Shown in pieces: positions 10,598-31,423 of a DNA stretch of 64,000 nucleotides. The position numbers and the translations under genes are program-made. The DNA comes from Methanosarcinales archaeon (lineage in GTDB: Archaea > Halobacteriota > Methanosarcinia > Methanosarcinales > Methanoperedenaceae), in the NCBI GenBank assembly GCA_905339155.1, contig CAJPFJ010000004.1, positions 1 to 64,000 on the forward strand, read 5' to 3'. A model generated the notes under the pieces. It did not search any database and was not told the origin of the DNA. It worked only from the letters and a program-made list of their open reading frames with translations. How positions within the stretch are numbered: position 1 is the first letter of the stretch; every line of letters begins with the position of its first letter.

Positions 10598-10912
10598 TAG
10601 CGGGCACACCTGGGGTCGCAGTCCCTTCCACTGAACGGTTGACCACAAACTCGCCTCCGCCCCGCGCCCCCATGAGCGATAGTTGTTCACGGCTGGTTTG
10701 CTCCCTTCCGGGCCTAGACCGTTATCCGCAACTAAGGCACAAAAACCTTCCTTCAGGAAAGCCCCTGTACCAACACCAGCCCCATAGGACGGGGTTTCAC
10801 AGTAGAACCTGTGGGCCATTCAATAGTCAAAACTTCTTCCTTTGGTTTCGCCCCCCGCTATCGACGGTTTCGGGTTACAGGTAACGCCGAGTTACCCGGG
10901 CTAGCCCGCCGG
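10598..10912 (-). ncRNA. ffs: archaeal signal recognition particle (7S) RNA
   Basis: The minus strand carries a roughly 315-nt GC-rich RNA gene in an AT-rich setting. Its 5' end has the archaeal SRP signature GGGCTAGCCCGGGTAACTC, GGCGTTACC and TGTAACCCGAAACCG. The apical helix 8 has the universally conserved GGCCCGGAAGGGAGCA (near 10716-10701). The first bases GCGGGC (10909-10904) pair with the 3' end GCCCGC (10605-10600), closing the molecule as in archaeal 7S RNA with helix 1/5. Exact ends are estimated to within a few bases. It scaffolds SRP19 and SRP54 for cotranslational membrane targeting. Two open frames over this locus are artefacts of the RNA gene. Confidence 0.93.
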
Positions 10913-28575: not shown

Positions 28576-28669
28576 TTAATCTTTTATAACGTGGGGAGAG
28601 GGGTAGAGAATACCATCGGACTTGTCCGATGGATGAATCGAACCCCCTTGTATATGTAATGTATTCCCC

Positions 28670-29893
28670 TCAAAACCCAAATTGTAGTCCTTTTCCATAA
28701 GTGATCAACTCCACATTTTTAATATTTGAATTAATATCCTTTCCATTATCGTTCTGTAATCGTATCCAAGCGCCATAATTGAAAATTCCCTTAACCGTAT
28801 ATGCCTGACCATTAAGCCTTACAAGATCATGAGGCTGGAATTTGTATCTCTCTCTTCGGATAGATGGTTTGAATCCTTTTCTATTCAATTGAAGAGAACG
28901 ATTGTTTCTTCTATTTTGCTTAACCGCATGAGGTCGGCATCTTTCCTGATCAGTTCCTTTTGATATTGCAAAAGCGTCATTTACATGCGATTTCTCTAAC
29001 CCCAAATATATCCTGAATTTCTTGGTGATGTAGCCATAGGTATGATTGACTGCGGTTTTTCCATACAGGTTTTTCAATCTTTTGACCAATTCCCATCTTA
29101 CGGTATTCATGAATGCGGAGGCTTTCAAGGATTTTTTGCATAATGCTTCGATCTCAGGATGACCAAATTCTGCTGCTGTCTTGTTTCCTTTCTTCTGATT
29201 GCACTTATGGCAGGCGATAGTTAAGTTGGAAACACGGTCACTTCCACCTTTTGAGGATGGGGTTACATGCTCGATCTCCAAGCGAATATCGGTCTTTCCA
29301 CAATAAGCGCATTTTCGCTGGAATTTCTCAAGCAGATATTCCCTTACTTCATAGCCCTGTAATTCGCCTTGCTGATACTCTATTCCTGATATTTCAGGAT
29401 TCTGCATTTTCTGAGTATCGAAGGATGCTACTTCAACGTCTATTTCAGTTATGGGAAGTAGTTTCTTGATCTTCTCGATCAATTCCAGATGAGAATTGAT
29501 CTTATGCTCTATTGAAGGGGCAAACCAGCCTTTTGGGATGCTCCTGTTCAGGAATCTTGGCTCTCGATACTGAGTATTCCTGTTTCTTCTACCACGCCGA
29601 TACATCATCTTTTCTTTGAGCTTATCAGGTATATCGGTTCTTAAAATCACTTCGCCTGATATGAGTTCTGCTGTTCTGGTTCTCGCAGAGTAACCTATTG
29701 TTTTGAATGCACTATCTATTCCCAATATAATTTCTTGTTTCGTTTCTCCTGTTGCGTATTTTAGCTGGATTGTAAATGGAGTTCGCTTAACAACTTTTGC
29801 TTTTCCCATTTTCAATAAATGCTTTGCTTTTGCTGCTCTGGTCGGCATCAAAGGTTGACCTCTCATGTTTAACACATATACAGGAACTCGCAA
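28670..29893 (-). CDS. iscB: IscB RNA-guided endonuclease (RuvC + HNH)
   Basis: From the TTG at 29893 this is a 407-residue IscB. In order: the PLMP domain (VPVYVLNMRGQPLMPTR; PLMP at residues 14-17), RuvC-I LGIDSAFKTIG (D60), arginine-rich bridge MYRRGRRNRNTQYREPRF, RuvC-II EIDVEVASFD (E154), an HNH nuclease with CAYCGKTDIRLEIEHVTPSS (H209) and NLTIACHKCNQKKGN (N223), and RuvC-III SHVNDAFAI (H303, D306). All catalytic residues are present. A longer frame to 30058 adds 55 residues that look unlike protein and coincide with the omega-RNA region, so I reject that start; AGGAAACAGGA before TTG 29893 supports it. IscB proteins are Cas9 relatives guided by omega-RNA. Confidence 0.9.
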   Translation of the reverse strand: MRVPVYVLNMRGQPLMPTRAAKAKHLLKMGKAKVVKRTPFTIQLKYATGETKQEIILGIDSAFKTIGYSARTRTAELISGEVILRTDIPDKLKEKMMYRRGRRNRNTQYREPRFLNRSIPKGWFAPSIEHKINSHLELIEKIKKLLPITEIDVEVASFDTQKMQNPEISGIEYQQGELQGYEVREYLLEKFQRKCAYCGKTDIRLEIEHVTPSSKGGSDRVSNLTIACHKCNQKKGNKTAAEFGHPEIEALCKKSLKASAFMNTVRWELVKRLKNLYGKTAVNHTYGYITKKFRIYLGLEKSHVNDAFAISKGTDQERCRPHAVKQNRRNNRSLQLNRKGFKPSIRRERYKFQPHDLVRLNGQAYTVKGIFNYGAWIRLQNDNGKDINSNIKNVELITYGKGLQFGF

Positions 29894-30131
29894 GTCCTGT
29901 TTCCTGTGTTTGGATTGGTTCACTTCGGAGCGGTTATCTAAAGTTTTTAAACCGGATACACTGAGAGTTTCCTCTCTGTTTAATATCCGATCACAGTTGC
30001 CACTAACTTGTGAAGCATCAGTGGGTGTGCATGTATTTCTTTTGGATAACTTTTTCAATTTCTTGACTCCTAATCAATCAAATTACTCTTTGTCCCTCAC
30101 GGGACAAGCCTCCGGTTTCAACCGGAGGTGA
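29894..30131 (-). ncRNA. predicted IscB omega-RNA
   Basis: The DNA from the element end (30131) to the IscB start codon is transcribed in the same direction, begins with two strong hairpins (CCTCCGGTT loop AACCGGAGG, then TTGTCCC loop GGGACAA) and is otherwise low in coding quality. IscB guide RNAs are known to lie upstream of iscB with the guide at the 5' end, taken from sequence flanking the element. Here the guide would come from the 3' end of the DUF1015 gene just beyond 30131. Length of about 238 nt fits known omega-RNAs. Confidence 0.6.
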
Positions 30132-31423
30132 TTGACTTTTCTCATAACGATCCCTTCTGCCACCTTGGGAAGAAAAAGCGTTGATTTCTGGGGAAAATTC
30201 TTCCTTTCAATAAATGCTTTTCTTTCGACGTCTTTTATTGAGAACGGATTTAAGAGAAAAGCAACTTTATATTCCTTTGAATCAACCCTTGAAATGGCTT
30301 CATCAGGACTTGCGTTAAAAGACACATCATCTACAGGTTTTCCCTGTATGACAGGATCTATCAGCCATTCATGAAGTACAATAAGGTCAAGACCCACAAT
30401 TTCTTTTTTCTCTCTTGAAAGATCATGCACAGCTTTCTCATCGGCCCTGAGGATACTGAATTTTTTCCCGTCGTACATCCCGAGCTTTATATCAAATTCA
30501 CTTCTGCGCTTCCTGAGCCTGGAATAGAATTCCTCGTCGTTGGTATCGCTTTCCCAGTCAATTGAAAAATTCTCCCGTATTTTTTGTGTAAGTTCCTGTT
30601 CGCTAAAATTGCGCACTGCCCTGTGCCAGGGTAAAAGTAAAAGAGCCCTGTCCCCTCCTTCCATCAGCATCATCATGGTATATTCAATGCCATCACTTTC
30701 CCTCAGGATATTTGATGCTGTGTACCTGTGGTGCCCGTCAAGTATGAGAAGCTTAAGTCCTTTTGTCAACTTCTTGATCTTTCGAATTAATTTTTCATCA
30801 GTTATCTCCCATAAAAAATGACGGCTGCCATTCAGGGTGACGTCGACTACAGGCGTTTTATCCGGATATGGCACAAAATCAGGGCGTTTAAAACCCAGGT
30901 ATTCCTCGAAAAGATTGTTCAAATCATGGTCTGGCATATTGTATTCAGCAGCAATGGGTGAAAAGTTCATCATACTTGCTCTCATCAACCTGTAGCGTTC
31001 GTTTGAATTTACTTCAAAAATTTTCTCATGCCCCACGATATTTCCTTTCCCGAGTTCTTCAACTTTAACAAGCGATACCAGGCCAAAAACAAAATACAGG
31101 CTCATCCTGTCTTTTTCAGGAAGAAGGGCCAGTATTTCAGGCGTAAGGGAATACATGATACCGTAAATATAAAAAGCAGGTTTTTCTCGTTCTAAAAGTA
31201 TCTTTGAGCTGATGAAACGATCGAGTTCTTTTGTTGCATATCCAATAAATTCATCCCTGTCCATGTCTTTTCTTCTGGTTGTCACCTGGATAATGTTGTT
31301 TTTCTCATGGGCGAATCTCTGGTAATTTGCGGCATCTATGGTATCATAAACCGGACAAATGAGTTTATCAATCTGCATCCCCGGATTAATTATCGTGGCT
31401 TTAAAAGGTCGAATTTCTACCAT
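30083..31423 (-). CDS. DUF1015 family protein, C-terminus altered by the IscB element
   Basis: A 446-residue protein with the DUF1015 core. Residues 200-240 contain LKLLILDGHHRYTASNIL with the family motif LDGHHRY, and the C-terminal half has VGLDLIVLHEWLIDP and AFLLNPFSIKDVERK with FLPKVAEGIVMRK, where the family normally ends. The last residues, VNHLRLKPEACPVRDKE, are encoded by the hairpin region of the IscB element and are not conserved-looking. So the true end has been replaced by element sequence, adding a tail of about 17 residues. DUF1015 proteins resemble ParB-like kinases in part of their fold; the role here is unknown. Upstream is the 318-base region with promoter-like repeats. Confidence 0.85.
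   Translation of the reverse strand: MVEIRPFKATIINPGMQIDKLICPVYDTIDAANYQRFAHEKNNIIQVTTRRKDMDRDEFIGYATKELDRFISSKILLEREKPAFYIYGIMYSLTPEILALLPEKDRMSLYFVFGLVSLVKVEELGKGNIVGHEKIFEVNSNERYRLMRASMMNFSPIAAEYNMPDHDLNNLFEEYLGFKRPDFVPYPDKTPVVDVTLNGSRHFLWEITDEKLIRKIKKLTKGLKLLILDGHHRYTASNILRESDGIEYTMMMLMEGGDRALLLLPWHRAVRNFSEQELTQKIRENFSIDWESDTNDEEFYSRLRKRRSEFDIKLGMYDGKKFSILRADEKAVHDLSREKKEIVGLDLIVLHEWLIDPVIQGKPVDDVSFNASPDEAISRVDSKEYKVAFLLNPFSIKDVERKAFIERKNFPQKSTLFLPKVAEGIVMRKVNHLRLKPEACPVRDKE

What the first reader, a model, noticed from the sequence alone, without database searches (positions are those of the whole stretch)
28584..30131. Complete IscB system with omega-RNA hidden in the annotated N-terminus, no transposase
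Seen: all RuvC and HNH catalytic residues, PLMP motif, arginine-rich bridge, and two strong hairpins at one element end. The open frame extends 55 codons beyond the plausible TTG start at 29893, and that extension has RNA-like structure and no protein homology signal. Known: IscB uses an omega-RNA encoded upstream with the guide from flanking DNA. Inference: an intact RNA-guided nuclease with a guide taken from the 3' end of the DUF1015 gene. An archaeal chromosomal copy with a likely functional guide is useful for study.
Basis: partly seen in the sequence, partly recalled or inferred. Interest (0 to 1): 0.72.

Follow-up and report, generated by a model that had tools for sequence, protein, structure and literature searches.

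The report
Archaeal IscB whose guide RNA is translated
A small mobile element in a methane-oxidising archaeon carries the RNA-guided DNA cutter IscB and its guide RNA, and comparison with about 30 relatives indicates that in this archaeal branch the start of the IscB gene lies inside the guide RNA, so one RNA would serve as both guide and message.

Summary
Minus strand 28588-30136 is a complete, transposase-less IscB element in a Ca. Methanoperedens-type genome. It has an intact IscB (NCBIfam guided_IscB, 394 bits) and a full-length HEARO/omegaRNA (RF02033, 116.9 bits, 29913-30136). Sister genomes hold clean empty sites, which fix both ends without target duplication. The predicted 16-nt guide plus flanking ATAAAA is intact at the empty site of three sister species, as expected for retention or homing. 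All this is a known kind.

The extension is constrained as RNA (strong covariation, no codon-phase signal). But across a broad archaeal clade a reading frame starts inside the omegaRNA behind a Shine-Dalgarno sequence. It stays stop-free in 33 of 33 loci, against about 4 stops in each other frame, and is either fused to IscB (window included, TTG 30058) or stops at the IscB start codon. Bacterial loci lack it. The Shine-Dalgarno is also one strand of the omegaRNA pseudoknot, so I infer that guide folding and IscB translation compete. I found no report of this in the papers I could search. Translation itself is unproven.

The parts
28588..30136 (-). Whole IscB element, 1549 bp (5' end at 30136, 3' end at 28588)
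   Evidence: Empty-site alignment with L097/L096/L098; L015 element shares both ends at another site, whose empty site is intact in sister genomes
29913..30136 (-). omegaRNA scaffold (HEARO, RF02033)
   Evidence: cmscan 116.9 bits, full length; covariation in 30 loci
30137..30152 (-). Predicted 16-nt guide GATCGTTATGAGAAAA, 3' end of the DUF1015 gene
   Evidence: Position 5' of omegaRNA (inference from the IscB family); only exact match in the genome; conserved at empty sites
28580..28587 (-). 3' flank ATAAAAGA, predicted TAM (ATAAAA)
   Evidence: Same 8 bases at the L015 insertion; ATGA or ATAA follows the right end in other relatives
30067..30071 (-). AGGAG: Shine-Dalgarno-like, and 5' strand of the nexus pseudoknot (last 4 bases pair)
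29927..29930 (-). CTCC: 3' strand of the pseudoknot that pairs with the Shine-Dalgarno
   Evidence: 94-100% paired with compensatory changes
28670..30058 (-). Likely translated IscB frame (462 aa), TTG start inside the omegaRNA
   Evidence: TTG aligns with ATG of relatives; open frame conserved
29879..30058 (-). Leader / N-terminal extension: overlaps omegaRNA, no codon-phase signal, predicted disordered
   Evidence: Codon-phase profile; AF2 pLDDT about 30 for residues 1-57
29880..29900 (-). Extra covarying hairpin across the IscB domain start, outside the Rfam model; holds TTG 29893
   Evidence: Helix 11: 8 of 8 pairs with changes on both sides
28670..29878 (-). IscB part under protein-level selection (PLMP, RuvC-I, bridge helix, RuvC-II, HNH, RuvC-III, C-terminal domain)
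28613..28632 (-). Right-end hairpin CCATCGGACAAGTCCGATGG
   Evidence: Sequence; equivalent hairpin at the same place in relatives
30083..31423 (-). DUF1015 gene; its last ~17 codons (VNHLRLKPEACPVRDKE) come from the element, against the short native end (...MRKIKN* in L097)

Best explanation
This is a non-autonomous (no TnpA) IS200/IS605-like IscB element inserted at the stop codon of a DUF1015 gene. Read-through transcription from DUF1015 would give an RNA with the guide (DUF1015 3' end) followed by the omegaRNA scaffold and IscB. IscB with this RNA would cut the empty allele (guide plus ATAAAA TAM), so that repair from the occupied copy keeps or spreads the element. In this archaeal branch IscB synthesis starts inside the omegaRNA: ribosomes bind AGGAG, which is also the pseudoknot strand, start at TTG 30058 (ATG in relatives), read through about 60 codons of scaffold as an unconstrained disordered tail, and continue into IscB. 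A folded or IscB-bound omegaRNA would hide the Shine-Dalgarno and shut translation off, so each transcript would be either guide or message. Shown: element, ends, omegaRNA, catalytic residues, conserved open frame with start signals, pseudoknot covariation. Inferred: transcription, cleavage, retention, translation from 30058, the switch.
For: IscB and HEARO matches. Empty sites, ends and intact guide+ATAAAA targets for two independent insertions. Guide occurs once in the own genome, where it is followed by GTCA instead of a TAM. Leader frame: Shine-Dalgarno plus start in the omegaRNA of archaeal relatives, 0 of 17 bacterial loci outside the two misplaced-looking MAG loci L016 and L023. 33 of 33 leader frames open against 4.5 and 3.7 stops in the other frames; chance of an open frame 0.034 per sequence by dinucleotide shuffle and 0.47 by column sampling. 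Further loci L172, L040, L200/L201, L132 also open and fused. Seven loci whose leader is out of frame, or stops in frame, end it at the IscB start codon. All 7 loci whose ATG at the usual place changed carry another in-frame ATG 6-18 nt upstream. Eight fused loci lack any start codon near the classic site. RNA structure covaries strongly, pseudoknot included. Trait follows the IscB tree, 30 of 30 against 0 of 28, three changes.
Against: No expression data. The window itself has TTG, not ATG, at the leader start, and TTG 29893 also has an AGGA 8 nt upstream, so the window alone cannot decide. The extension shows no amino-acid selection, so only openness and start signals argue for translation. 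Sequences are related, so the column-sampling product overstates independence. In L024/L028 the TTG at the 29893-equivalent position looks like a real start reached after the leader stops. Cleavage and TAM are predicted from position only.
Confidence: 0.72

Rival explanations
1. Classic IscB: the omegaRNA is an untranslated 5' leader and IscB starts at TTG 29893; the open frame through the RNA is an accident of RNA conservation.
For: TTG is present in about half of the fused loci and has an AGGA 8 nt upstream in the window; extension has no codon-phase signal; bacterial IscBs start there.
Against: 33 of 33 open frames with start signals, start-codon turnover, leader stops placed at the IscB start, and eight loci with no start codon at the classic place; TTG 29893 is explained by a covarying hairpin.
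Confidence: 0.18
2. The extension is a conserved protein domain of archaeal IscB that happens to look like RNA.
For: Recognisable amino-acid similarity between extensions of relatives.
Against: No third-position excess over codons 1-60, higher nucleotide than codon-level conservation; Rfam match and covariation; pLDDT about 30.
Confidence: 0.03
3. The locus is an inactive relic, or its RNA-guided nuclease has been taken over by the host for another purpose, with no retention role.
For: No adjacent transposase; single copy of this subfamily in the genome, the other two IscBs being only 50% identical.
Against: All catalytic residues intact, both ends intact, frame intact, omegaRNA intact, guide and TAM intact at empty sites; an 87%-identical IscB sits at another site in another species, so the element has moved.
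Confidence: 0.07

Closest known systems
IscB / HEARO OMEGA systems (OgeuIscB, MG35-1; PMC9640706, PMC9755519)
   Same: PLMP domain, split RuvC with HNH, arginine-rich bridge, omegaRNA upstream, guide from the 5' flank, 3' TAM; mostly without TnpA
   Different: In bacterial loci tested the IscB start lies after the omegaRNA; here the frame begins inside it. Archaeal members as such are already known (PMC9755519 cites 'bacterial and archaeal' ISC transposons; PMC12988326 reports IscB-HEARO in archaeal genomes).
IsrB (DtIsrB, PMC9581776)
   Same: The omegaRNA's terminal hairpin holds the Shine-Dalgarno of the protein gene, and the authors suggest this could regulate expression
   Different: There the coding region starts immediately after the RNA; here the Shine-Dalgarno is in the central pseudoknot and about 60 codons of scaffold are read through
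TnpB omegaRNA (PMC10278001)
   Same: Guide RNA is made from the nuclease's own mRNA
   Different: TnpB omegaRNA is at the 3' end of its mRNA; this is the mirror arrangement at the 5' end
Rfam RF02033 HEARO
   Same: Full-length match
   Different: Archaeal members add at least one covarying hairpin 3' of the model, across the IscB domain start

Membership tests
IscB | Match to the curated IscB model | tested here: met
   guided_IscB 394.1 bits, cut-off 175
IscB | RuvC D/E/H/D and HNH histidine | tested here: met
   D115, E209, H264, H358, D361 present and invariant or nearly so
IscB | PLMP domain and arginine-rich bridge | tested here: met
   PLMP 69-72; RRGRRNR at 154-160
IscB | HEARO omegaRNA directly upstream, same strand | tested here: met
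   RF02033 full length, covariation
IscB | RNA-guided cleavage with a 3' TAM | not testable with these tools
   Guide+ATAAAA intact at empty sites; activity needs the bench
IscB | Fold like solved IscB complexes | tested here: met
   Foldseek top 8 hits are IscB chains, best E 1.8e-24; model of modest quality, pLDDT 60
IS200/IS605 element | Hairpins near both ends, insertion without target duplication | tested here: met
   Empty-site junctions; end hairpins
IS200/IS605 element | Own Y1 transposase TnpA | tested here: not met
   None in the window or near the related loci; other Y1 genes in the genome could act in trans, untested
Translated-omegaRNA IscB (grouping proposed here) | Start signal in omegaRNA and stop-free frame to IscB | tested here: met
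   TTG 30058 after AGGAG with 8-nt spacer
Translated-omegaRNA IscB (grouping proposed here) | Ribosomes actually translate the leader | not testable with these tools
   No expression data at hand

The most novel reading that the evidence does not exclude
In a clade of archaeal IscBs (and some archaeal relatives resembling IsrB) the guide-RNA scaffold is itself translated: the iscB Shine-Dalgarno is a strand of the omegaRNA pseudoknot, so guide folding and nuclease synthesis exclude each other on the same transcript, giving a built-in autoregulatory switch.
Probability: 0.55. Interest if true: 0.72.

Novelty: new variant of a known kind. Interest (0 to 1): 0.56.

Why it matters
IscB is held to be the ancestor of Cas9. 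How one locus supplies guide and nuclease in the right ratio is a natural question for IscB. If the archaeal omegaRNA is translated, guide and message are alternative fates of one molecule, and the ratio of nuclease to guide could be set by a pseudoknot that hides the ribosome site. This can be tested with a few point mutations. It also means that archaeal IscB proteins carry a tail of scaffold-encoded residues, which matters for anyone expressing them, and that archaeal omegaRNAs may extend past the Rfam model.

Tried and rejected
Extension as a protein domain: rejected by the codon-phase test. Extension as RNA only, open by accident: disfavoured by frame, start-turnover and stop-placement evidence. 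RNA pairing as the reason for the conserved ATG (it can pair as GCAU/AUGC): disfavoured because the ATG moves upstream in frame when the usual place mutates. A TnpA sharing this element's ends in the same genome: the left-end hairpin pattern occurs only once in the genome, so no trans partner was identified. A search for the guide elsewhere in the genome found only the element's own flank. Literature searches for IscB with Shine-Dalgarno, upstream open reading frame and autoregulation gave only the IsrB precedent; Altae-Tran 2021 and Kapitonov 2016 were not held, so prior mention there cannot be excluded.

Full report
WHAT IS THERE. The minus-strand frame 30058-28670 is an IscB. It scores 394 bits against NCBIfam guided_IscB, hits Pfam RRXRR and HNH, and its closest solved relatives are IscB complexes by sequence and by predicted fold. 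The RuvC residues D115, E209, H358, D361 and the HNH histidine H264 are present and conserved in relatives; they correspond to the D61/E193/H340/D343 and H247 named for OgeuIscB in PMC9640706. Directly upstream, 30136-29913, is a full-length HEARO RNA (116.9 bits against a gathering score of 83). The genome is Ca. Methanoperedens-like: the closest relative of the element, L015 (85% DNA identity), lies in a record titled Candidatus Methanoperedens sp..

ENDS AND INSERTION SITE. In sister genomes the DUF1015 gene continues past the insertion point without interruption. L097 reads GTTATGAGAAAA-ATAAAAAATTAATTATTTTCG where the window reads GTTATGAGAAAA-[element]-ATAAAAGATTAATTATTTTCG. This fixes the element at 28588-30136 with no target duplication. 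The insertion replaced the last codons of DUF1015 (...MRKIKN* in L097) by 17 codons read from the element. The L015 element sits elsewhere, in what looks like the start of a phosphate-transporter permease gene (inference from the translated flank). Its two flanks joined give an open frame, and that joined 90-mer matches other Methanoperedens genomes without a gap, up to 92% identity, while it is split exactly at the element in G003, which carries this element. Both insertions have ATAAAAGA on the 3' side. In other relatives the right-end hairpin is followed within a few bases by ATGA or ATAA (I picked these by eye and did not test them against chance). NNRR is the TAM that PMC9640706 gives for OgeuIscB, and ATAA or ATGA fits it.

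GUIDE AND TARGET. By analogy with IscB the guide is the flank 5' of the omegaRNA, GATCGTTATGAGAAAA. This 16-mer plus ATAAAA is intact at the empty site of L096, L097 and L098. The L015 guide AAGGGCATGAAATGGA plus ATAAAA is intact in L220, L221 and L222. In the own genome the guide occurs exactly once, at its own flank, where it is followed by GTCA, which does not fit NNRR. So the element should spare its host allele and cut empty alleles. That is the retention or homing logic proposed for OMEGA nucleases; here it is inferred from sequence.

NO TRANSPOSASE. None lies in the window or near the fetched relatives, in line with PMC9755519, which says that few HEARO nucleases sit next to TnpA. Y1 transposases exist elsewhere in the genome, but I could not tie one to these ends.

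THE EXTENSION IS RNA. Over codons 1-60 of the 462-aa frame, differences between relatives fall evenly on the three codon positions. From codon 61 (nt 29878) on, third positions dominate about 2- to 3-fold. Between close relatives the extension is usually more conserved in nucleotides than the core. In 30 archaeal loci the HEARO helices covary strongly: 312 two-sided changes against 101 in shuffles, 84.9% of cells paired against 69.0% (the structure was derived from the window, which favours it somewhat). AlphaFold gives residues 1-57 a pLDDT near 30 (17-sequence alignment, overall pLDDT 60).

BUT THE FRAME IS KEPT. In the archaeal relatives a Shine-Dalgarno-like AGGAGG and an ATG lie inside the omegaRNA, about 61-91 nt from its 5' end, and the frame is open to IscB. 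The window has AGGAG and TTG 30058 at the same place; L015 has ATG. I collected 33 such leaders (duplicate loci removed): all are stop-free in this frame, with means of 4.5 and 3.7 stops in the other two. The chance of an open frame is 0.034 per sequence under dinucleotide shuffling, and 0.47 per sequence even when each column is sampled from its own observed letters. The sequences are related, so the joint figure is only a guide. The set was first assembled partly by openness; therefore I checked two things. On a tree of IscB cores the trait fills whole supported clades, 30 of 30, and is absent from the 28 others, with three changes. Loci not used before (L172, L040, L200/L201, L132) are open and fused too, L172 and L040 over longer RNAs with 91-93 codons (L172, L040 and L200/L201 were recognised by eye after the automatic search, whose distance and motif limits missed them). 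Archaeal exceptions exist: L173, L182 and the Methanosarcinaceae-like loci L177-L189 are classic.

THREE FURTHER SIGNS OF TRANSLATION. First, in seven loci the leader is not fused, and it ends at the IscB start: TTGA overlap in L024 and L028, ATGTTAG or GTGTTAG in L032, L038 and L043, TAG AAC ATG in L159, TAA ATG in L016; these look like four independent cases of translational coupling. Second, where the codon at the usual ATG position has changed (L021, L024, L028, L031, L037, L042, L176) there is another in-frame ATG 6-18 nt upstream. Third, eight fused loci have no ATG, GTG or TTG near the classic IscB start (L005, L006, L020, L030, L033, L034, L156, L160). The TTG at 29893 lies in a covarying hairpin, 29880-29900, which Rfam does not model, and is TCG, ACG, CCG, CTG or GTG in relatives. 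Bacterial loci show none of this: 17 of 19 have no such leader, and the two that do, L016 and L023, carry archaeal-type IscBs in MAGs labelled Actinomycetes and Elusimicrobia, which may be transfers or misbinning.

MECHANISM. The Shine-Dalgarno strand pairs with CTCC near the RNA's 3' end in a pseudoknot supported by compensatory changes (helices 4 and 5). A ribosome on this site, or one reading through the scaffold, cannot coexist with the folded guide. So guide and message should be alternative fates of one transcript, and accumulating IscB could lock the RNA as guide and stop its own synthesis. For IsrB a Shine-Dalgarno within the last hairpin of the omegaRNA was noted and a regulatory role suggested (PMC9581776). 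[quoted passage not shown] The arrangement proposed here is the mirror image. It is inferred; no RNA or protein data were available.

VERDICT. An IscB element with its omegaRNA in an archaeon is a new member of a known kind. The translated scaffold is, as far as the held papers show, an undescribed variant. It is well supported by comparison and simple to test.

Noticed in passing
L007 (G000 C6:31763-31990), L163: omegaRNAs without an IscB behind them; both keep a leader frame of about 100 codons running past the RNA. L164 looks like an in-frame deletion joining the leader to the RuvC-III part. These resemble non-autonomous (MITE-like) derivatives.
   Followed up: partly
L166, L168, L170, L171 (G040): Short omegaRNA-like copies with an inserted hairpin block; G040 holds 11 HEARO matches in one genome, an unusually large family. 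A similar 78-nt in-frame insert is in L160 and L162.
   Followed up: partly
L165, L169 (and L167 partly), G040: Distant relatives, about 40% identical over residues 2-162 with 50-bit HEARO matches, possibly IsrB-like; they also have a Shine-Dalgarno plus ATG in the RNA and a fused frame. Class not tested.
   Followed up: partly
L172, L040: omegaRNAs enlarged by repeated AAATCGAAGATTT-type hairpins whose insertion keeps the reading frame open.
   Followed up: no
L016, L017 (Actinomycetes MAG CSMAG_2074), L023 (Elusimicrobia MAG GH52): Archaeal-type IscBs in records labelled bacterial; transfer or misbinning.
   Followed up: no
L200, L201: Archaeal-type IscB with fused leader on contigs classed as viral in IMG/VR.
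   Followed up: no
window 10598-10911 (-): Archaeal SRP RNA, 211.9 bits.
   Followed up: no
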